The notes under the pieces were generated by a model. It did no database searches and was not told the origin of the DNA. It saw only the letters and a program-made list of their open reading frames with translations. Source: Saksenaea vasiformis B4078 (Eukaryota > Mucoromycota > Mucoromycetes > Mucorales > Saksenaeaceae). Taken from it: a stretch of DNA of 64,000 bases. Both the position numbers and the translations under genes were made by a program. The stretch is taken from positions 1 through 64,000 of the forward strand of contig JNDT01001888.1 of NCBI GenBank assembly GCA_000697055.1, read 5' to 3'. Of this stretch, positions 9,377 through 37,144 are shown one piece after another. Positions within the stretch are counted from its first letter, which is position 1. The number at the start of each line of letters is the position of its first letter.

Positions 9377-9624
9377 GGCTACAATGTCCAACAATCACCA
9401 CAAAACCGAAGATTGGATAAAATGAAAGTAAAAACGAATGGACCACCTGAACCTGGTTTTTGTAACTGGAAGGTTTTTTTTTCTGCTGCCCGTTCCACGA
9501 CTAAAGTTTCGTGCCCGGCCATAATTACAGTTTAACTTGAAATTGAGACGGAATTTGCATTTTTTTTAGGCCAATCAAGTTTTATTTTTAGACGATTACA
9601 AATTTTTTTGGGACCAACTGACCT
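9377..9624. other. PMT upstream region abutting a repeat
   Basis: This is the promoter side of the PMT gene. From about 9539 the sequence takes on the GAGACG/poly-T character of the inverted repeat that follows, so part of it may belong to that element. Confidence 0.4.
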
Positions 9625-10036
9625 CTCACATTTAGACGAATGTCTTTTTTTGAGACGACCTCTATTTTTTTTTTTGAGACTGTTAAGCAGTTTTCAGAGA
9701 TCTTTTTCGCCTAAAATCTAAAACTAAATGGACTTCATTTAGTATAGCCCTACTGAGAGCTCTCCGCTTATCCTACGATGAGAGCTCAGATGAGATGGGC
9801 TTTGATGATTCCGCTATCGTGTAAAGTCAAATTGAGATGCTCGTCGAATTCGACGCTGTTCCTGAGACCTGATATACAGCCGATTGTCAAGATTGGATGA
9901 CGTACTAATACTTATTGGAATCTATGCCTGCAAAAAGAGATTGGCTTGAAGTAGGATATGTCTCAATAACATGTTAAATAAGTCTCGAAAAAAAAATAGA
10001 CGTCGTCTCAAAAAAAGACATTCGTCTAAATGTGAG
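9625..10036. repeat. MITE-like inverted repeat with ~55-nt arms
   Basis: The left arm (9625-9680) begins CTCACATTTAGACGAATGTC and runs through TTTTTTTGAGACGAC to a final GAGAC. The right arm (9982-10036) is its reverse complement with only a few mismatches, mostly in poly-T length. The spacer is about 300 nt and non-coding. A direct repeat close to CAAATTGAGACGCTG occurs outside the right arm (about 10050) and, diverged, inside the spacer (about 9830). The structure fits a miniature inverted-repeat element or the end of a larger DNA transposon; a structured transcript is an alternative. No autonomous partner is assigned. Confidence 0.7.
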
Positions 10037-10125
10037 CACTTTCACTGGTCAAATTGAGACGCTGTTTTCTAAATACATGTCTTTTTTAAAATGGATTGAT
10101 GGTGACAAACTTCAGAAAATGACTC

Positions 10126-10680
10126 TTGAGATGGACGAGACTGGTGTTCCTGTATGCGACATGGGCATTGGTTGGCAGTTGTGTCAAACAATATCCTGAG
10201 CGCATAAAGGGCGGAAAGAGTGTCAGCAAAGTTTGCTTAGGCGCAATTAAGTGTACGAATGATGCATGTGGAAAGCTGATGAGACCAAATTCGTCTCTGA
10301 AGATGATTGAGAAGTGGTTGGAGTGTGTGTGTGTCCGCTGTTCACCAGGAGGAGGTCTTTAACCAAGCTTATTCATATCGAACGTCCTGTGAAAGTCAAT
10401 TTCAAAATTCGCGTATCTGGTGGGCAAGTGATACACAAAGGAACTCATATGGATAAGACATTTGAACCATTGCATGTTTCAATTTAAGTCGTTGAAAAAG
10501 CTTGAACAGCGCGTGTTGGAGCTTCCATCCGAGACACCCAAAGGCTTAATGCTCGTTACAAGTGCGCTGAGATCCCAGAATCCCAGTCGAACTATACGCG
10601 ACATGGACGGATGCTTTCTAAAGCTTTGAAAGCAGATTACCGAAATCTGCTGATTTTGTAAGGATTGTTGTTGTATCATC
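10126..10680 (+). pseudogene. Mutator-like transposase zinc-finger fragment (WRKY/GCM1 type), decayed
   Basis: The frame at 10126-10362 contains YPERIKGGKSVSKVCLGAIK followed by CTNDACGKLMRP, the first half of a WRKY/GCM1-type zinc finger often found in MULE-like proteins. After a stop or frame change, bases about 10377-10475 encode HIERPVKVNFKIRVSGGQVI and HKGTHMDK, the second half, with an expected Cys changed to Arg. Farther on, about 10490-10660, an out-of-frame segment reads LEQRVLELPSETPKGLML, typical of the region after that finger. The fragment is interrupted and lacks the catalytic DDE part. It adjoins the inverted repeat, so both may derive from one element; that link is inference. 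Confidence 0.55.
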
Positions 10681-11446
10681 TTGCATGATCTTTTTTTTTT
10701 TCATGGCAAAAACTTGATTCTTATACTAGCATGCTTCATGTGTTATCGATAGACAATTTTTAAGATCTGCACATTACCCACAAAAACTCACTGTTGGGAT
10801 ATTTATCATCATTTCTGGTCATCAAAGAATCCAAGAGGTTGACGGAGGTGAGGCCGAAGATGTGGCAATTGCTCTCTGAGCGGTACTTTATACATCCATA
10901 ATAACAAAAAATCAATTCTCTATTCGCTGTGCCTTTCTGAGTAAGCCTATATCGCCCATAAGATTTTTTTTTGGAAGTGGGTTGGTCATCCGAGAAGCCA
11001 TTCGTTCTAAGAAAATGCGCAGGATACACCACATTTTCGGCCTCATCCCCGTCAACTTCTTGGAGTCTTTGGTGACTGCTAAAATTTTCTCAAGGCATCT
11101 AGATTCTTCTCAGGGTTTTTCAAGGTAGTTGCAGGTAACTTCCTGTAGCGGTGGAAGGTATCAATGATCATGATAATAAATCATATAGAAAACCAATAAT
11201 ATATTTAAAAAATACGATAGTTTACAATGGACGAGAATAGATAAAAGCCGCTGTTCTCAGTACAACAACAATGAAAACCGGTATTCTGCATGAAAGGACA
11301 ATAAAAATCATTCTGATAAATAAACCCTTCTCCTTTACTGATCGTTCATCCAGTGCTCTCTTCCTTTTCCCTCTTCGTCCTCTTCGTTTACGGGTCTTTC
11401 TATGCTTCATTAATACAACCTTCATATTTCGATATTGTCTCCAGCA
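10681..11446. other. Spacer upstream of the Fanzor gene
   Basis: A minus-strand frame at 10760-11032 has no resemblance I can name. The last part (about 11340-11446) is pyrimidine-rich and is the likely promoter/leader of the Fanzor gene. Confidence 0.4.
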
Positions 11447-14400
11447 ATGTCAGAGCCATCTACATCAGTTCCTGACAGACATGACTATGAGGGTATGACG
11501 GTGGCTCAAATAATCCACTATAAAAAGGTCAAGAAACGTCGAGAGATGGAAATCCAAGCAAGTATGTCAAGTAAAAAGCTCAATAGTATATATGACTTTA
11601 CCTTACTTTCTATTTTGAACCATAGTGCGAGAAGGTTTTCAAGAGCCTGAGGAAGGTGAACAGCCTGAGTCTAGTGCGCAGGCCCAGCAGCGTACTCAAA
11701 GACAGCTTGCTGGTGAAAAACGGAAGCGAAAGCAGTCAGTACAAGAAAGATCGAGAAAACGGACTGCAGCAAGAGAACGACAAGAAGCAACAAGAAAAAC
11801 GTCCACTAAAAGATGCCCAACGTGTCTGCAAGCCGGTAGATTTGAAGAAGCTCAGACACATAGCAGAAGATCCAGCAAGCTTTGTCCCGATTACCTTCCA
11901 CGCACCAGTGTACGGCAACGTCAATTATATGGGAAATTAAAAGAAACTACCCGAAAGATTGGTTTACGTCAACTACTCGACATGCAGGACGAAGAAAAAG
12001 TGCAGTTTGTCAACGTTGTCGATGAGTTGGTAGCTTACCAGCGTGACGTGATCCTCAAGGGTCATCTATTCATTACGTACTTTATATATGATCAATTGCA
12101 TGACAATCACATATTGCATCCATCTATATATACGCATGATTTCTTTTACGGAATATTCCAATTGATTACTGGCCAACAACCAACCAACACTGCTGTATTC
12201 CATGGTGAATTACTTACTGACGTCATGCGCTCCTTCAACGATTACAGAAGTCGCTACCCATACGGCAAAGTAATATCTTCGTCTATGTTGGAATATTGCA
12301 CAAAATTTATCAATCGAACCGTGGAAGACTACACTCAATGGCTAACAAATTATATATCTCTCCGTCTCCGAGCCATTGTCAACGTGAGTGAAACGTTCAC
12401 TCTTATTTTTCAGTTTACTGATAATGGTCTATTCATTTCTGTAGGAATTACAAAAACCTGATGCAGATAAGTTGGCCCTATATGTCTTTGAAGTGCTGGC
12501 AAACAACGAATCGTTCCCTCCTGTATTTCCGGCGAGATTGTCTTTCACCCCTGAACTCGCCGAAGATGTTAACAACGCCGTCGTACAAGTGATGGAAGAA
12601 GTAGAGGTGGATCTCGAGATTCTATTTACTTTGGGAGACTTGACTGAATACATTGGGTCACTTCCAAGCAATCATGAAGGCCAACTCGGTGATATACGGC
12701 TCAGGCTTTTCGGATTGCATAGCACTTTCAATGAAGCTTGCGCTCTGGCTCATGACTTACTCAATCGACGTCGCACCAGTCATGATCGCCTTCCTCAGTT
12801 AGTGGCCAATCTTATTGAAATTGAACGCATCTGTACGCGCATTGGCAATATCAACCAAGATGTTGTTCGTCAGTTTGATAATCATGTCGATCTTACAAAC
12901 GCACACTGGGATGAACTTACAGCATGGGATGAAATGGTTACTATCGAAAACACAATTGCTCAATGGGAACCTCAATTCAACCAGTCGCAAGAGGTTTCTC
13001 ACGAGGTAGCACAGTTGACGGAAATGATGAACCAACAAATCACTCAACTGAATGCCACCATTGATACATTTGCTACTATGCAAGAAAGTTACGAGCAAGC
13101 TCAAAATAATTATCAAGATGCCCTTACAAGGTTCCATGCTAATGAGACGTTCGGTAACCGAGAACTCCTGCAAAGACTGGTTGACTACGTAACCCCACTG
13201 GACATTCCTGGATATGGCGAAGGAGAGGAGATAACCAAGACCTTGGATACCTCTTTTATAACAAGACATGTCAACTTGTTTACAAGGATGTCTTATCTTA
13301 TTGCAACGTACATTGAACGCTACAATAATGAAGAAATAAGGATTGCCAGCGATGCACAGGTGGAAGCTTCTATAAGATGGACAAGGCAGCAAATACGCGA
13401 GCTTGAAGAAAATCCAAGAATCGGGAGAAGACGCAGGAATGGACTGGCACGACGATTGCTTGCTGCAATCAACAATGGCCAGCCTTTGGATCGTGCTCGC
13501 ATGAATTTCATTGGTGACGCCTCATTTGATCGATTACAAGAACTAGTTACTACAACACAGGAGCAGATTCAAGCTTCAAGAACATTTCTACAAGATCCTG
13601 AGACCAATCAAGAGATTTTTGATCAGTGCTTTCGCCCGGACTTATTTACGGTAGCAAATCAACAACGGTTGTTTAATGTGGTGCCTAAGCCTGGCTTTAC
13701 GAAAAAGTATGCTACCATTGATAATCAGACCTGTGAGACGTTGCTTCGACGTGCTGGATTGCGCCATCTTATACAACCACGTACTGCAGAAGTAAACACA
13801 ATTCGTCACATATTAGATTTACGCAAGGTGCGATGCTATGAAACGTAAGTCACTGACGTTTCATTCATACTACGAATGGGTACGAAACTAATAGTTCTAT
13901 TTTACAATAGTGATCATGGTAGAAGAAAATCTTTCTTTTCCGGCCAGATTGCTACGGACGGTTATGCCACCTCGGTTCTCCTTCGCAAACAAGTCCGTGT
14001 CGAAGAAGCACTTCCTGATTTAACGCCTGAAGACTTCGAAGAGTGGGAGATGCAATATGTGAAGATGTGGGGTGCGGATCCCGGTGTGTCCGACATATTT
14101 GTCGCAAGCAGTGGGAGCGATGATATTTATAATGTTGATGTGATGGAAACCACTGACGGTAATCTGGCCTAATGCAGTACAAAGAATGAAATGAATGACT
14201 GAACTGGTTTGTACTGTATATATAGACGAAGATGATGAGGAGGTACCAGAGCAAGACCAAGAAGAGGAGCAGAGCGCATGGATACGATTTCCGACTGCGA
14301 TACCAACAACGACAAAATCAAGCACCTCACGATATCCGCTCGTTATCTTCGGCCGAATACTACACAAAGGCAGGCTTCAAGCGCACAGTGGGTCTAGTTC

Positions 14401-15246
14401 AGAATGCCAAGAATCAAGCGAACATAGGCGAAATTGAAAGAACGATCGTAACCAACAGAACAGCCGATTTCGATCGCATCAACACTTACATCCGGTCGAT
14501 CTTAAACGTGTTCAATGGATTGACTGAATTTTACGGACACCAGTTTCATCGAGGCTTAAAATTTAGGAACTACAGAGGCAGGCAGCGGATGGACGCTGAG
14601 CTCGTTAATGTGTTTGTGAGCGGTGGCAAAAAATACGGTGATCTTGGTGAATGGTATGGCATGCCTCGGTCAAGACGAAGAAGAAGAGAAGGCGTACGAC
14701 GTCAATTTGCTGGAACTGGTCCACTCGTTCCGACCCATGAAGCTCCTCCCCCAAATCAACGTGAGCCGGCTGGAGAAAAGACTTTGTAAGTTACCAAAGA
14801 TGTCATTATAGTGGAGAACCAATTTTTTCTTATGCAATACCAACGATAGTAAATGGAAAAAGGCGTCCACAAACAATGATTTGTCGAAGGTTCTTGTCAT
14901 CGGTTTCGGCTCTGGTCGTTTTGGTAGAGGGCAATACGGCGGAAAACCAGTTGGATTGGCGGAAAAGTGTCGAAAGCTACTCAAGAAGGCAGAGCAAGAA
15001 GGAAGGCTTATCGTCTTCAACATCAATGAATATAACACGTCTCAAGTGTGTTCAAGATGTGGTGAAAAAGCATTGGAACAAGTCCGTGCTGCGGGTCTCA
15101 GTCTGTACACCGTATTAACTTGCACCAGTTGTCGTACGGTGTGGCAGCGAGACATCAACGCCTCTCGAAACATCTATGGTATATGCTACAATACCATCTA
15201 TCATGGTCACCGGCCAAGCATTTTTACACCTTCTGGAGGTAGTTGA
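11447..15246 (+). CDS. Fanzor-type RNA-guided nuclease (TnpB-like), large multi-exon gene
   Basis: Six exons are inferred: 11447-11561, 11626-12383, 12445-13844, 13911-about 14158, 14226-14785 and 14850-15246, about 1,150 residues. All junctions keep phase except that between exons 4 and 5. Exon 2 has an N-terminal zinc-finger-like motif (CPTC at 11813-11824, then H and C). Exon 3 is helical and Gln/Glu-rich. Exon 4 has GADPGVSDIFVAS, RuvC-I, with its Asp at 14077-14079. Exon 5 has AEYYTKAGFKRTV and VSGGKKYG. Exon 6 has the RuvC-II Glu in NEYNTSQVC (15028-15030), the CSRC and CTSC zinc ribbon, and the RuvC-III Asp in QRDINASRN (15151-15153). All three catalytic acids are kept. At exon 4/5 the GTAATC donor leaves a one-base offset. 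A GTGATG donor at 14140 would close the frame; otherwise there is a frameshift. Known: Fanzors cut DNA guided by an RNA from the element. Confidence 0.85.
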
Positions 15247-15864
15247 TATCTCTTGCCTTACAGTTGTAAGTATAGATACCCTCAAATGTTATACCAATGT
15301 TACTAATGCTATATCTGCTTTGTCCCATCTCTATATTGCTGTTCGTCTACTTTACCATGATATTTCGTCCACTATTTCTGCGGGTTATTGTTCATTTTGT
15401 ATTGTAACTCCGTCTAAATTTCAAAAGGAAAAACTGTAGCCGGGTATATCGGCGTCCGAATAGCTTATCTAGTCTTCTACCATCTTCTGCTTCTTATTTC
15501 TGTTTCTTTTCTTACTGTTTTCTATAGCATTCATCTTCATTATTTGTAAACAATGTTAGTGAGAGGAATTGTTACTCAATTGAAATGTCGTGTTGATTTT
15601 TCGAAGGGAAGAATTTTTGAACGTTCCATACCCGGGCCTGGCATTCAACTTTCTGCAATCATCGGGGACACACAAATGATATGGTTTTTACAAAACAGGG
15701 TAAAACCCTTAGAATGATTTTCAATGACTAGTGGACCTAAGCCCTTTGAGGTTTTTTCCTTTTTTCACATTCTACTGCTGTGATTGAAATAGAGTAACCA
15801 AAAACAAATAAGTACATCTCTATTTCAGCAGCCACTCCGGGGAAGAAAGATCTGGAAAAAAAAA
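15247..15864. other. Fanzor 3' flank; possible guide-RNA region, otherwise empty
   Basis: No protein-coding gene seen. In TnpB/Fanzor elements the guide RNA usually overlaps or follows the 3' end of the nuclease gene, so this is where one would look; I see no specific structure that proves it. Confidence 0.3.
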
Positions 15865-31397: not shown

Positions 31398-34300
31398 ATG
31401 ACCATCACTGATCTCGTGCACCTCACGAATAACGATGAGATATGCGAGTTGTTAAGGGCACGTTTTGTCGAAGACAAACCCTACACACGCCTCGGTCACC
31501 ATCGCATGGTGGTCCTAAATCCGGAAAAATCATTGGACCTTTGGAACGAAACGAATCTTCGGGCGTACGCTAATCATGGTTACAAGGATCTGTTAGCGAC
31601 TGCGGACGGATTTGATCCTGAACCGCATATTTACGAACTGGTCACCCGAGTTTACTTCATCATGCGACGTCGGGCAGAAGATCAAACAATCGTGTTAAGG
31701 TAAGGGGAAGGGAAGGAGAGAGAAGAAGACGCAATGTAACATCCATTTCAACCGTGCTCTCTCTCCCTGTATGTGTGTATATCCTGCAGTGGCTATTCGG
31801 GATCGGGAAAATCAACGACACATCGTCATTTGCTTAATGAACTATTACTGCTTTCAACGCATACGCGACGTGAGGAGAAAGTACGCCGTCAGATTATAAG
31901 CGCCAACACTATCCTCGAGACGTTTAGTATGGTGGCAATGCCCAACAATCCGACTGCTTCACGACTGGGGAAATGTCAGACGCTGCAATTCAACGAGCGA
32001 GGGCACATTGTTGGTACACATATGGCTGTTTACCTTCTCGACAAGTTTCGCACAACGTTTGATATATTTTATCAATTGCTGGCCGGTACCACAGCGGACG
32101 AAAAAGTTGCCCTGCATATTAATCATTCTGTCGACCATTTTGCCTACCTAAAACAATCACATAATCAACAGGAGCTCCGGTTCGACGAGATAAAAACATC
32201 CCTCAAATCATGTGGGTTCAAAGCCAAAACAATTGCTCAGATCTTTCAGTTGCTCGCGGCGATTCTTCATCTCGGTAATGTTCAGTTTGTCGGCAGCACA
32301 GCAGCCACAGCCCAGGAATCATGCCAAGTGAAGAACAAAGATACTTTGTCCCTGGTAGCCGCTGCATTAGGTGTAGCAACGGCAAAGCTAGAAAACACCT
32401 TGACACACAAACTAAAACTGATCGGAAAAGAGTTCTGTACAGCTTTCTTAACGGTCGATACAGCGGTGGAACAACGTGATGCCTTGGCAAGATCGCTGTA
32501 CAAGATCCTGGTCCTTTGGATCGTCGATTCACTTAATGCAAAGCTAAGCGCCAACAACGGGAGCAATAGTATCCTTATTCTAGACCCCATTGGCCTACAA
32601 ACTTCAGCAAGCGTCTTTCATGATCTTTGTGTGCACTTTTCGGCAGAACGTATCCATCAATATGTTTTACGGCGGACGTTTGATCCCGCGTTAAACACAG
32701 AACGACCGACCATGCCGTCAACGACATCCAATTGTTATATCCCATCCATCCCGTTATTGATGGGCACCAACGGCAACAAATACGCGCTAGTCCCTTTGAT
32801 GGATCGTGAATCGCAACGATTCCAGGCTTATGCGTTGGATGCGACCGACACACATCTGCTGTCAACCATGTTTCAAAGGAAAAAGGCGAACGACGAAGAT
32901 TATCGCGCGTTGCAATCACCATCCACCCCATCCTATAGCTTTGCCATTCAACATTTCAATACGTCCGTCGACTATTCTGTGGAAGGTTTCCTCGAACATA
33001 ATGTTGATGCACTTTCGCCAGATTTTATCCACCTTTTCCGATACAACTGTACCAACACCTTTGTCCATGATCTCTTTGAAAGTTCCGTCCTATTGACGGA
33101 GATGCACCCGCGGGACGAGCGCACGATCATCAAAGCCCAGCTACCCACTTTCCCTTCACGGTGGCGCACAAGCAAAGTTTCCCCCTCCTCATCATCTACT
33201 TCTTCCTCGCCATCCTCTGCTTCCATCGTCTCCACGCCGGAGCCTCCAAAAATAGCCACAGTTCTTGATCAGGCCGTCCACGGAATGGATGGTCTGAACG
33301 AGGCGATAGCGGGCAGTCGAGTCTTCGAGATCATGCATATCCGGACCAATCAGCAACAGACTCCCGGTGTTTTCGATCCAGCCATCGTTCTGCAACAACT
33401 AGATGCTTTTCGTATAGCCGATTATGCCCGCCACTGTGCCACCCATGATTCTATGTACAGCTACACCTTTGAAGACTTTGCGACGCGGTACCGACATTTG
33501 CTTCATTCCTTATCCGTTGATCCTCAGAGCGAAGACCAAAGACAAGTGGAACAGTTAATTGAGATCATGCATTGGACCGATACAGATGTGCAACTGGATC
33601 AACACCGGGTATGGATGTCGTTCAGCGTCTGGCGTGATCTGGAGAACCATCTGAGGGTCAAGGAAAAAGAGGCGCGTGTTCGTGAAAAGGAACGTCTGGC
33701 GGCAATCGAAGCCGAGAAAGAGGCTTCTCGGCTAGCTGCAGCTGCAGCTGCTGAGGCAGCCGCTGAAATGGAAGCCGCCGAGGCAGCAGAAGCAGAGGCA
33801 GCGGCCCAAGCAGCGGCAGCAGCAGCTGCTGCAGCAGCCTCTGCTTCTGCGAATGCCACAGCGGCGGAAGGACAACTGTGGGATAATCCATTTGATGATG
33901 AATGCCGATCGGACCTTTATTCTCTCAACGAGTTTGGTGATAACCGAACCGAGTTCGACGATCACGATGGCAACAAGAGCCAGTGCCATTGGGGAGAAGA
34001 TGAAGATGATCCAAAAACGTGGGAAGGGTAAATGAATTGAATAGACTGAGCGAGAAAAAGGGTGACACTAAGCCAAAACAAAACGAAAACAAAAAGGTTC
34101 GGGCCAAACATGGATATGAGTAAGATGGTCGAGGACTACCGTGTTCAGCCAGAAGAGCAAGTAGAAGAAGTCCCTATCACACCCATACGGCAGTTTTGGG
34201 GGCGGTTCGTTTGGTTAGCAACATGGTGGATTCCATCCTTCATGTTGAGATGGTTTGGAAAAATGACGCGTCAAGACGTGCAGATGGCGTGGCGGGAGAA

Positions 34301-37144
34301 ACTGACATTATGTATGATGATCTTTCTGTTTTCAGCTAGTATCATCTTTTTCATTGTCGGCCTCGGCGTCGTCATATGTCCAGGAACGAAGGATCTGTAC
34401 TCAAGTGAAGATGTCAAAAATCATCAGACAATAAACGACTACTGGGTTAGTGTGCGCGGCAAGGTGTACGATTTGTCCAAGTTTGTGGTCACTGACCACG
34501 GCACGTCGACATTTATGGCCACACAATCCAATTTGGAGCCCCTTGCCGGTCGCGATCTGTCCTACACTTTTCCACCACCATTGACAGTAGCATGTGCTGG
34601 GCTTGTGTTTGACGACAGCATCACCATTACACCCAACGAAACCATTGTCCTTGGCCCGTACGTTCATTTCTCCGGCCGGCAGCAACCAGAAAAAGGGCCA
34701 CAAAAATTAAGAGATCCCAACTGGATAACCAAGTACTTCGAGCCCCGGATGAATGCATTTAAGAAGGGTGACCTAGTCATACCGATGAAGCAAATCAAAG
34801 ACGATTATCACGGATGGGGACGGCTGATTGCAAGCATTGACGAAAAGGTATATGATTTGACAGACTACATGATCACGGCGCACCAGTACCCTATTGACAG
34901 TGAAGGCGTACCCGACTATCATTTCTTGAACCCTGAAGTCGAGAAACTGTTTACCACATTTGGAGGCAAGGATGCTACGCATGAATGGTACAACAACCTT
35001 CGGATGGATGCGAAAACGCGCGCACAGAACTTGCAGTGCTTGGACAACGTGTTTTACATTGGACGTCTAGATTACCGAGACTCTGTTCGGTGCACATTTG
35101 TGAACTACCTCTTGCTTAGTTTTGCCGTCATCATGTCTCTGGTTATTCTTGTCAAATTTCTTGCTGCATTACAGTTTGGTGGTGCACCTACACCTGAAGA
35201 GCATGATAAATTTGTCATTTGCCAGGTCCCATGCTATACGGAAGATGAAGAGAGCTTGCGGAAAACCATCGACTCTCTAACGGCCATGACATACGATGAC
35301 CGACGTAAGCTGCTCTTCCTTATTGCAGATGGAATGATCATTGGTAGCGGTAACGACAAGCCGACGCCAAGAATTCTTCTGGATATTCTGGGTCATCACT
35401 CCGATCAAGATCCGGAACCGTTAATGTTCAAGTCTATCGGTGAAGGCTCAAAACAACTGAACTATGGCAAGGTGTATTCTGGTCTCTATCAGCATGAAGG
35501 TCACACGGTGCCCTACGTTGTAGTGGTCAAGGTGGGCAAGTCGACGGAACATACCAAACCAGGCAACCGCGGTAAACGGGATTCGCAAATCATTTGCATG
35601 AATTTCTTAAGCAAGGTGCATTTTGACTCGGAGATGACGCCACTGGAATTGGAGATCTACTACAACATTAAGCATGTCATTGGTGTCGATCCTTCCTTTT
35701 ATGAGTACATCTTGATGGTTGACTCGGATACGGAAGTATATCCCGATGCATTAAATCGCCTCATCTCGTGCATGTTACACGACAGCCGCATCATTGGCCT
35801 GTGCGGCGAGACCGAACTGGGTAACGAAGACCGATCATGGGCAACCATGATCCAAGTTTACGAGTATTACATATCACACCACCTTGTCAAGGCATTCGAA
35901 TCGTTATTTGGTTCGGTCACATGTCTGCCCGGCTGTTTCTGCATGTACCGTATTCGCACTGCCAACAAACGTCAACCGTTAATTGTGTCACCTAATGTGA
36001 TTCATGGTTACTCAGACAATCAAGTCGACACCTTGCACAAAAAAAACCTGTTGCATCTTGGCGAGGACCGTTATCTAACAACGCTGATGATGAAAAATTT
36101 CCCGCAGTACAAAATGATGTTTACGCCTTATGCAAAATGTCGGACGGTTGCTCCAGATGAATGGCGTGTCCTCCTCTCTCAACGACGTCGTTGGATCAAC
36201 TCGACCATCCATAATCTCCTCGAACTCATTCTCTTACCGGAGCTCTGCGGTTTTTGCTGCTTCTCCATGCGGTTTGTGGTCATGATTGATCTGATCGGTA
36301 CCATCACCCTTCCGTCCTCAGTGATCTATTTGGTCTACCTTGTTTACTCCGCTGCGTCGGGTGGACCGATTCCCATGATTGCATTAGGCATGCTTGCAGG
36401 TGCTTATGGACTTCAAGCGTTGATCTTTATTGTCAAGCGACAGTGGCAACATATTGGCTGGATGGTTATCTATATTTTTGCCATACCCATTTTTAGTTTC
36501 TTCATTCCGCTGTATGCATTCTGGCATTTTGACGATTTCTCATGGGGTAACACCCGTGTGGTAGTTGGTGATAAGAAGAAACAGATTATCGTGACAGACG
36601 ACGAAAAATTTGATGACAAGATGATTCCACTCAAACGCTGGGCTCAGTATGAACAGGAGATGTGGGAAACCAAATCCGTGGTGTCAGATGAAACCAAAGC
36701 AAGTGCATACACCTATGCGAGTCAGTCAACCATGCATCGATCTCATTATTCACACTTGTCTCATGGGTCCCAACAACCACCAGTTCCTTACCCACCATCA
36801 CCCTCTGCTCTGATGCCATCGCTTGTTCCTGGACTTCCTGAACGCCGACTCAGTCAATTCTCCGTAGACATGTCTGCTATTCTTCATTCAAGCAAACCAA
36901 AAGATACCGCGGTTCTTCCCGAAGATGAAGATCTGGAACGTGAGATACATCATATTCTTATGAACTCAGATCTGATGACATTGACGAAAAAACAAGGTAA
37001 TGAAACAAGAAATTTCGAGAAGTCTCTTAACTGTTTCTATTTATTGTAGTACGCGATCAACTGTCAAACTTCTTCGGTGTAGACTTGACAATCAAAAAAG
37101 GGTTTATCAACGCAATCATAGAGCGCTTCCTAGAAAATTACTAA
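31398..37144 (+). CDS. Chitin synthase with N-terminal myosin-motor-like domain (class V type)
   Basis: The ATG at 31398 begins MTITDLVHLTNNDEICELL. An intron (about 31700-31789) splits VL from SGYSGSGKST, a myosin-like P-loop with Tyr where Glu is usual. The motor-like part runs to about 33650, then a charged helix and an alanine-rich tract (33729-33850). A stop at 34029-34031 would end it, but a 46-nt intron (GTAAAT donor, AAG acceptor) would join it in phase to KRFGPNMDMSKMVEDYRV. The second half has membrane helices, cytochrome-b5-like segments (YWVSVRGKVYDLSKFV), the GT2 catalytic domain with EDRYLTT (about 36063) and QRRRW (36181-36195), more helices, and a final exon with a DEK-C-like end (RDQLSNFFGVDLTIKKGF). 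Total near 1,850 residues, usual for class V. It makes wall chitin. Two separate proteins remain possible. Confidence 0.85.

What the first reader, a model, noticed from the sequence alone, without database searches (positions are those of the whole stretch)
11447..15246. Near-complete Fanzor (RNA-guided nuclease) gene with all three RuvC acids
Six exons read as one protein of about 1,150 residues with RuvC-I GADPG, RuvC-II NEYNTS, a CxxC/CxxC zinc ribbon and RuvC-III RDINASRN. It also has an extra N-terminal zinc-finger-like motif and a long Gln/Glu-rich helical region ahead of the RuvC core. Fanzors are a recently recognised eukaryotic nuclease class, and a copy with a full catalytic triad is a candidate for activity.
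Basis: partly seen in the sequence, partly recalled or inferred. Interest (0 to 1): 0.8.

Follow-up and report, generated by a model that had tools for sequence, protein, structure and literature searches.

The report
Decayed Fanzor nuclease in fungal transposon
This fungal gene is a slightly broken copy of a Fanzor, a protein related to CRISPR nucleases, carried by a jumping-gene element whose likely mover enzyme and candidate guide-RNA region can also be seen in the same genome.

Summary
The Fanzor call is right; the activity claim is not, as the copy stands. Six exons with five GT-AG introns carry DPG, the Fanzor-type alternative glutamate (NEYNTSQVC), a zinc ribbon (PF07282, E 1.7e-14) and RuvC-III RDINASRN. 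A frame break in the acidic linker of exon 5 cuts canonical translation to about 910 residues, without RuvC-II, the zinc ribbon or RuvC-III. All 11 paralogs compared differ from the window in frame there, and all 11 carry other lesions. Window-versus-paralog dN/dS is 0.17-0.31, so the frame was probably under selection before the family decayed.

The gene lies in a 5.9-kb element (9528-15436) with TA on both sides. Its left end is 91% identical to both ends of a 1.69-kb Tc1/mariner element elsewhere in the genome (C189), which has an open 433-aa transposase ORF. The right end is precise, followed by TA in all 11 loci checked. Just after the Fanzor stop, an invariant block contains TACAGTT, complementary to the right terminus plus TA: a candidate guide-RNA scaffold. 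Best reading: a recently inactivated Fanzor1 passenger of a mariner-mobilised element; a new member of a known kind.

The parts
9526..9527 (.). TA target-site duplication, left copy
   Evidence: matches TA at 15437-15438
9528..9624 (+). left end with terminal inverted repeat (CAGTTTAACTTGAAATTGAGACGG...), mariner type
   Evidence: 91% identical to both ends of the C189 mariner element over query 4-97; resembles the right terminus
9625..10036 (.). subterminal stretch: rearranged internal sequence of the same mariner family, with 49-nt inverted repeats at 9625-9673 / 9988-10036
10037..10660 (+). decayed second ORF in several frames, cysteine-rich (CLGAIKCTNDACGKLMRP...); function unknown
   Evidence: no Pfam match above cut-off; 10155-11139, which includes most of it, is absent from 5 copies, with 8-bp repeats TTCCTGTA at 10147 and 11140
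11447..11561 (+). Fanzor exon 1
11626..12383 (+). Fanzor exon 2, with N-terminal C2HC-like motif; lacks 36 nt present in all 9 paralogs that cover this place
12445..13844 (+). Fanzor exon 3, long, predicted mostly helical (expected REC/WED; not shown)
   Evidence: 89 matches in own genome, the window included; low-confidence model
13911..14158 (+). Fanzor exon 4, RuvC-I GADPG
14226..14785 (+). Fanzor exon 5: acidic linker, carrying the frame break near 14270, and RuvC middle part
   Evidence: weak match to SpuFz1
14850..15246 (+). Fanzor exon 6: RuvC-II NEYNTSQVC (alternative Glu), zinc ribbon, RuvC-III RDINASRN, stop
   Evidence: PF07282 E 1.7e-14
15247..15274 (+). candidate start of guide-RNA scaffold: 28 invariant bases after the stop, with hairpin CTTAC-AGTT-GTAAG
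   Evidence: longest invariant run in 10 copies, reached in 88 of 20000 shuffles
15275..15436 (+). rest of the right end / candidate scaffold; right terminal inverted repeat at about 15406-15436 ends AACTG
15437..15438 (.). TA target-site duplication, right copy; can pair with the TA of internal TACAGTT
15439..15458 (+). flank that would be the guide if the scaffold model holds
   Evidence: inference; the flank differs at each of 11 loci

Best explanation
The gene is a Fanzor1 passenger in a 5.9-kb TIR transposon of a fungus, moved in trans by a Tc1/mariner transposase (inferred from shared ends and TA duplications). While intact, the protein would have bound an RNA running from just after its stop codon through the right end and the TA into the flank, so that the flank served as guide (inferred from known Fanzors). 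The RNA's invariant 5' block contains a copy of the transposon tip that can pair with the right tip plus TA, so the fixed end becomes scaffold and the guide starts after TA (inferred). The nuclease would cut the emptied or homologous site and favour copying the element back (inferred). This copy looks like a recent loss: one frame break, while the paralogs have several lesions each.
For: Zinc ribbon, DPG and alternative Glu. TA on both sides; the two tips resemble each other (1 of 5000 shuffles as good; 0 of 63 other CTG|TA ends in the window as good). Left end 91% identical to both ends of C189, which has a 433-aa ORF with DDE_3 (E 7.1e-25); right tip against the C189 tip: 0 of 5000 shuffles as good. 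Right terminus followed by TA in 9 of 9 ends placed by BLAST and in 11 of 11 loci given, whose pattern itself asked for CTGTA; the 11 flanks all differ. dN/dS 0.17-0.31. Scaffold: 28-nt invariant run (88 of 20000 shuffles); TACAGTT/AACTGTA pairing kept in 69 of 70 cells over 10 copies (read); a heptamer match at that distance occurs at 15 of 3732 TA sites of the window. A second family has a longer pairing of the same layout, 97.1% of cells paired, with one two-sided change.
Against: No RNA data. The 3' region of the window folds no better than shuffles (z 0.71; 154 of 200 shuffles at least as stable). In the second family the two-sided change is not beyond the tool's shuffles (148 of 500), and a rival helix exists there. 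In family 1 the pairing hardly varies, so it gives no covariation. BLAST of the last 138 bases of the element finds only chance-size matches in C189, so the right end's kinship rests on the tip alone. Of the copies read, only the window has both ends; C295 has a truncated left end and five copies have a different, longer left side. No empty site found in the assembly.
Confidence: 0.75

Rival explanations
1. The copy is still expressed as a nearly full-length protein because a cryptic splice site skips the acidic linker, or because the frame break is an assembly error.
For: The window copy has one frame break and otherwise open exons; donor 14159 with an AG ending at 14274 keeps the frame.
Against: Two other Fanzor families (C428/C33 and C525) have a comparable acidic stretch before the same motif, so the linker looks exonic; all 11 paralogs differ from the window there.
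Confidence: 0.15
2. The left mariner end is a separate, older insertion; the Fanzor unit is an element of unknown type with a right end only, spread by duplication or one-ended events.
For: Five copies share a different left side of about 0.8 kb or more; 9625-10036 is a scrambled mariner piece; the right 138 bases do not match C189 by BLAST.
Against: TA on both sides; the right tip resembles the mariner tip (0 of 5000 shuffles as good); the flanks rebuild a palindrome across the insertion site.
Confidence: 0.2
3. The gene is a domesticated host gene.
For: dN/dS below 0.32 against the paralogs.
Against: Multicopy with different flanks, TIR/TSD, decayed copies, frame break.
Confidence: 0.03

Closest known systems
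Fanzor1 in Mariner elements (PUl-1, PUl-4, PGv-1, HMa-1; Bao and Jurka 2013, PMC3627910; passages by 'find' and section 12 read)
   Same: Fanzor1 inside TIR elements with TA duplications, some without their own transposase
   Different: The Mucorales Fanzors described in section 12 are in MuDr-like (9-bp TSD) or unclassified elements; here a fungal family has mariner-type ends and a candidate transposase partner
SpuFz1 of Spizellomyces punctatus (PMC10432273, section 7 and passages read; PDB 8gkh)
   Same: Fungal Fanzor1, 30-nt IRs, guide RNA between stop and right end, no transposase found inside the IRs; weak sequence match (E 0.0046)
   Different: 2.1-kb single-ORF locus, TAM CATA, 134 ghost copies; here 5.9 kb, six exons, and each of the 11 right ends has a zinc-ribbon match nearby; one deletion derivative without it (C53) was seen by BLAST
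PpFz1 of Parasitella parasitica (PMC11423790, passages read)
   Same: Fungal Fanzor1
   Different: PpFz1 has a cyclophilin-binding RuvC insertion (FRI) and TAM ATN; presence of FRI here was not tested, and no chain named PpFz1 was among the PDB hits
SfAV Fanzor1 (PMC10711439, section 27 and passages read)
   Same: Non-autonomous TIR element; TIR and TSD predicted to be part of the RNA scaffold, RNA extending about 15 nt past the TSD
   Different: Viral element with unknown transposase; there the RNA was shown by small-RNA sequencing
MCi-2 family of Mucor circinelloides (PMC3627910, section 12)
   Same: Copies share the 3' part with the Fanzor but differ in their 5' regions
   Different: MCi-2 has 11-12-bp TSDs and no recognisable TIRs

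Membership tests
Fanzor | C4 zinc ribbon (PF07282) | tested here: met
   E 1.7e-14, 54.2 bits against cut-off 26.3
Fanzor | RuvC-I motif DPG | tested here: met
   GADPG in exon 4; definition from PMC10711439
Fanzor | alternative RuvC-II glutamate six residues upstream of the zinc finger | tested here: met
   NEYNTSQVC: six residues between E and C; definition from PMC10711439
Fanzor | RuvC-III aspartate after the ribbon | tested here: met
   QRDINASRN
Fanzor | one unbroken frame joining the catalytic residues in this copy (needed for activity, not for membership of the family) | tested here: not met
   frame break in exon 5
Fanzor | guide RNA overlapping the right end | tested here: inconclusive
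   conserved block and tip pairing; fold no better than shuffles
Fanzor | RNA-guided DNA cleavage | not testable with these tools
   needs protein and RNA
Fanzor1 (versus Fanzor2) | carried by a non-IS607 eukaryotic transposon, divergent from TnpB | tested here: met
   TIR element with TA duplications; PDB matches weak. No tree was built, and some Fanzor2 are also in non-IS607 elements (PMC10711439), so the sub-class is likely, not proven
Tc1/mariner transposon | TA target-site duplication | tested here: met
   both sides of the window element; TA after the right end in 9 of 9 ends; no empty site to confirm
Tc1/mariner transposon | terminal inverted repeats shared with a transposase-bearing element | tested here: met
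   left end strongly, right end by its tip only
Tc1/mariner transposon | DDE transposase inside the element | tested here: not met
   no DDE match above cut-off among the ORFs of the window element that were scanned; non-autonomous, partner candidate at C189

The most novel reading that the evidence does not exclude
Fungal Fanzor1 families carry, directly after the stop codon, an internal copy of their own transposon tip that pairs with the right terminus plus the TA duplication. This would be a simple, portable device by which a guide-RNA scaffold absorbs whatever end its current transposase demands, so that one nuclease lineage can ride on different transposons while the guide always starts at the first free base. 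Seen in two families of one genome here; not clearly seen in two others.
Probability: 0.35. Interest if true: 0.55.

Novelty: new member of a known kind. Interest (0 to 1): 0.35.

Why it matters
It adds a fungal Fanzor1 family for which a likely mobilising transposase with an open ORF lies in the same genome, so the question of how Fanzors help their host transposons can be put to a test with a defined transposase, defined ends and a predicted guide RNA. It also points to a genome with at least 137 TnpB/Fanzor zinc-ribbon matches (150 of 388 candidates scored), useful for studying how scaffolds follow transposon ends.

Tried and rejected
Protein database search with the spliced translation: none of 7988 scored candidates at E 0.001; I do not know how well fungi are covered there. 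Viral contigs with the exon-6 profile: 171 pattern matches, none confirmed. Rfam at gathering thresholds, 9400-15700: nothing. Exon-3 structure: mean pLDDT 42.7, not searched further; the exon-3 profile against the PDB gave 36 hits at E 0.09-0.9, none a Fanzor or TnpB. Empty site: none. Ghost copies: none among the 11 right ends (lists are lower bounds); C53 keeps a right tip and exon-3 sequence without a zinc-ribbon match. Second ORF: no Pfam match above cut-off; its likeness to GCM/WRKY-type zinc fingers is recalled, not tested. In families 3 and 4 I looked for the same tip pairing by eye and saw no clear case, only other hairpins. Rows dropped: the second pattern hit in L039; L039 and L051 left out of alignment A1; L025 left out of A2 (same 3' sequence and flank as C428 by eye); L039 left out of the 11-paralog alignment.

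Full report
What is there. The window lies in a 38.7-Mb, 666-contig assembly of what must be a fungus (myosin motor and chitin synthase ORFs at 31740-37046). Between 11447 and 15246 six exons, separated by five GT-AG introns of 61-67 bp, encode a Fanzor. Exon 4 holds GADPG; exon 6 holds NEYNTSQVC, a C4 ribbon and RDINASRN. Pfam finds Cas12f1-like_TNB (PF07282, E 1.7e-14) in exon 6 and nothing above cut-off in the other exons. Against the PDB, the C-terminal part matches SpuFz1 (E 0.0046) and several TnpB relatives weakly; a four-member profile of exon 6 matches TnpB-like L79 at 3e-7, other TnpBs down to 4.6e-4, SpuFz1 at 0.17 and GtFz1 at 0.54. DPG with a glutamate six residues before the zinc finger is the signature that PMC10711439 (passages read) gives for Fanzors.

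The frame. The family model joins exon 4 (donor 14159) to exon 5 (acceptor 14225), giving an acidic linker and then HDIRSLSSAEYY. Two other families in the genome (C428/C33 and C525) have a comparable acidic stretch before the same motif. In the window the frame breaks inside the linker near 14270; all 11 paralogs compared differ there in frame (9 by one base; 2 by gaps of 12 and 1 nt). Canonical translation then ends at 14435-14437. The 11 paralogs carry other lesions: in-frame stops in 9 of 11 and, besides this site, frame-breaking indels in 11 of 11 (several are cut by contig ends, so counts are lower bounds, and a few indels compensate each other). The window copy is thus the least damaged one seen, but not intact. 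It also lacks 36 nt, a multiple of three, that all 9 paralogs covering this place have.

Selection. Against the window, dN/dS is 0.17-0.31 at dS 0.15-0.20 for 11 of 11 paralogs; between seven pairs of the others that I chose it is 0.33-0.91, highest for the closest pair. I read this as selection on the protein while lineages were active, followed by relaxed decay. Introns differ from the window by 3.6-11.2%.

The element. BLAST of the window against 12 fetched loci gave a common right end. In 9 of 9 ends placed this way the sequence runs ...CTG|TA and then into a different flank. One search, whose pattern asked for CTGTA, found it in all 11 loci given (10 full-length right ends, the window among them, plus C53), with 11 different flanks; the 11th place, C618, matches only in part and was not given. 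The left end starts at 9528 after TA. Left and right tips resemble each other (1 of 5000 shuffles as good; 0 of 63 other CTG|TA ends in the window as good). The genomic flanks, put together, read CCCGGC-CATAATTA-GCCGGG, a palindrome spanning the insertion site. No empty site was found in the assembly.

The likely mover. Ten other places match the left end. Two of them face each other at C189:9062-10751 and enclose a 433-aa ORF with DDE_3 (E 7.1e-25) and HTH domains, with TA at both outer ends. Matches of its protein also lie beside other left-end places (C269, C595, C604, C611, C31). No DDE domain was found in the ORFs of the window element that were scanned. That C189 moves the window element is inference; the last 138 bases of the element have only chance-size BLAST matches in C189, so on the right the kinship rests on the tip.

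Left-side variety. C295 has a left end truncated at about window 9554. C122, C64, C175, C71 and C25 show no mariner tip in the stretch held and share a different, longer left side; C64 and C175 are cut by contig ends. 9625-10036 is scrambled mariner sequence. Five copies (C295, C64, C175, C71, C25) lack 985 bp between 8-bp direct repeats TTCCTGTA; this stretch holds most of a decayed cysteine-rich ORF with seven other partial matches in the genome, C122 among them. The pattern recalls MCi-2 of Mucor circinelloides (PMC3627910, section 12 read).

Guide RNA. 15247-15274 is invariant in 10 of 10 copies, the longest such run in the 3' region; shuffled columns reach it in 88 of 20000 trials. It contains the hairpin CTTAC-AGTT-GTAAG, whose TACAGTT (15259-15265) is complementary to AACTG plus TA (15432-15438). 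Pairing holds in 69 of 70 cells (from; the pair table printed is offset by one base, the letters are as given). At other TA sites in the window a heptamer match at this distance occurs in 15 of 3732. A second family (C428, C310, C484, C522, C480, C201, C382) has TTTACACTGCTT or TTTACGCTG(C/T)TT after the stop and a right end of the type AGGAGTAGTGTA; in the ten-pair helix 97.1% of cells are paired, with A-U, G-U and G-C at one pair and G-G in C480, but shuffles reach the covariation in 148 of 500, and a rival helix competes for the same bases, failing only in C382. Single-sequence folding of the window region is not better than shuffles (z 0.71). So the scaffold model fits published cases (PMC10711439 section 27; PMC10432273 section 7) but is not proven here.

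The N-terminal motif CPTC-x11-H-x7-C is found in 5 of 7 loci tested (window, C64, C533, C525, C428; not in C310 and C53). Its function is unknown; a zinc knuckle is likely. The helical exon 3 remains unassigned.

Verdict. A real Fanzor gene, most likely Fanzor1, in a mariner-type element, recently broken in this copy. Literature searches run: 'Fanzor' (82 papers, 40 listed), 'Fanzor'+'Mucor' (2), 'Fanzor'+'mariner'+'transposase' (5). Four papers were opened, in passages or sections; nothing seen there describes this family, but the other papers were seen as listings only, and supplements were not searched.

Noticed in passing
9514-9527 and 15437-15444: The joined flanks form a palindrome CCCGGC-CATAATTA-GCCGGG with the insertion point in its loop.
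   Followed up: partly
10037-11139: Decayed cysteine-rich second ORF; 10155-11139 is missing in five copies between 8-bp repeats; seven other partial matches in the genome.
   Followed up: partly
whole genome: At least 137 matches to the TnpB/Fanzor zinc ribbon and at least 105 to the C189 mariner transposase.
   Followed up: partly
L067-L070, L072, L078: Two further Fanzor families have other compact hairpins directly after the stop, e.g. GTTTTTC-TATA-GAAAAAC, with a two-sided change in C458.
   Followed up: no
31740-37046: Myosin motor ORF followed by a chitin synthase ORF; fungal myosin-chitin synthases of this layout are recalled, not looked up.
   Followed up: no
C33 and C428: Two second-family copies share the same right flank, so one may be a segmental duplicate or a haplotype contig.
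   Followed up: no
exon 5 tail, about 14700-14785: Proline-rich stretch (GPLVPTHEAPPPNQ) in a longer spacer than in SpuFz1; whether it relates to the cyclophilin-binding insertion of PpFz1 was not tested.
   Followed up: no
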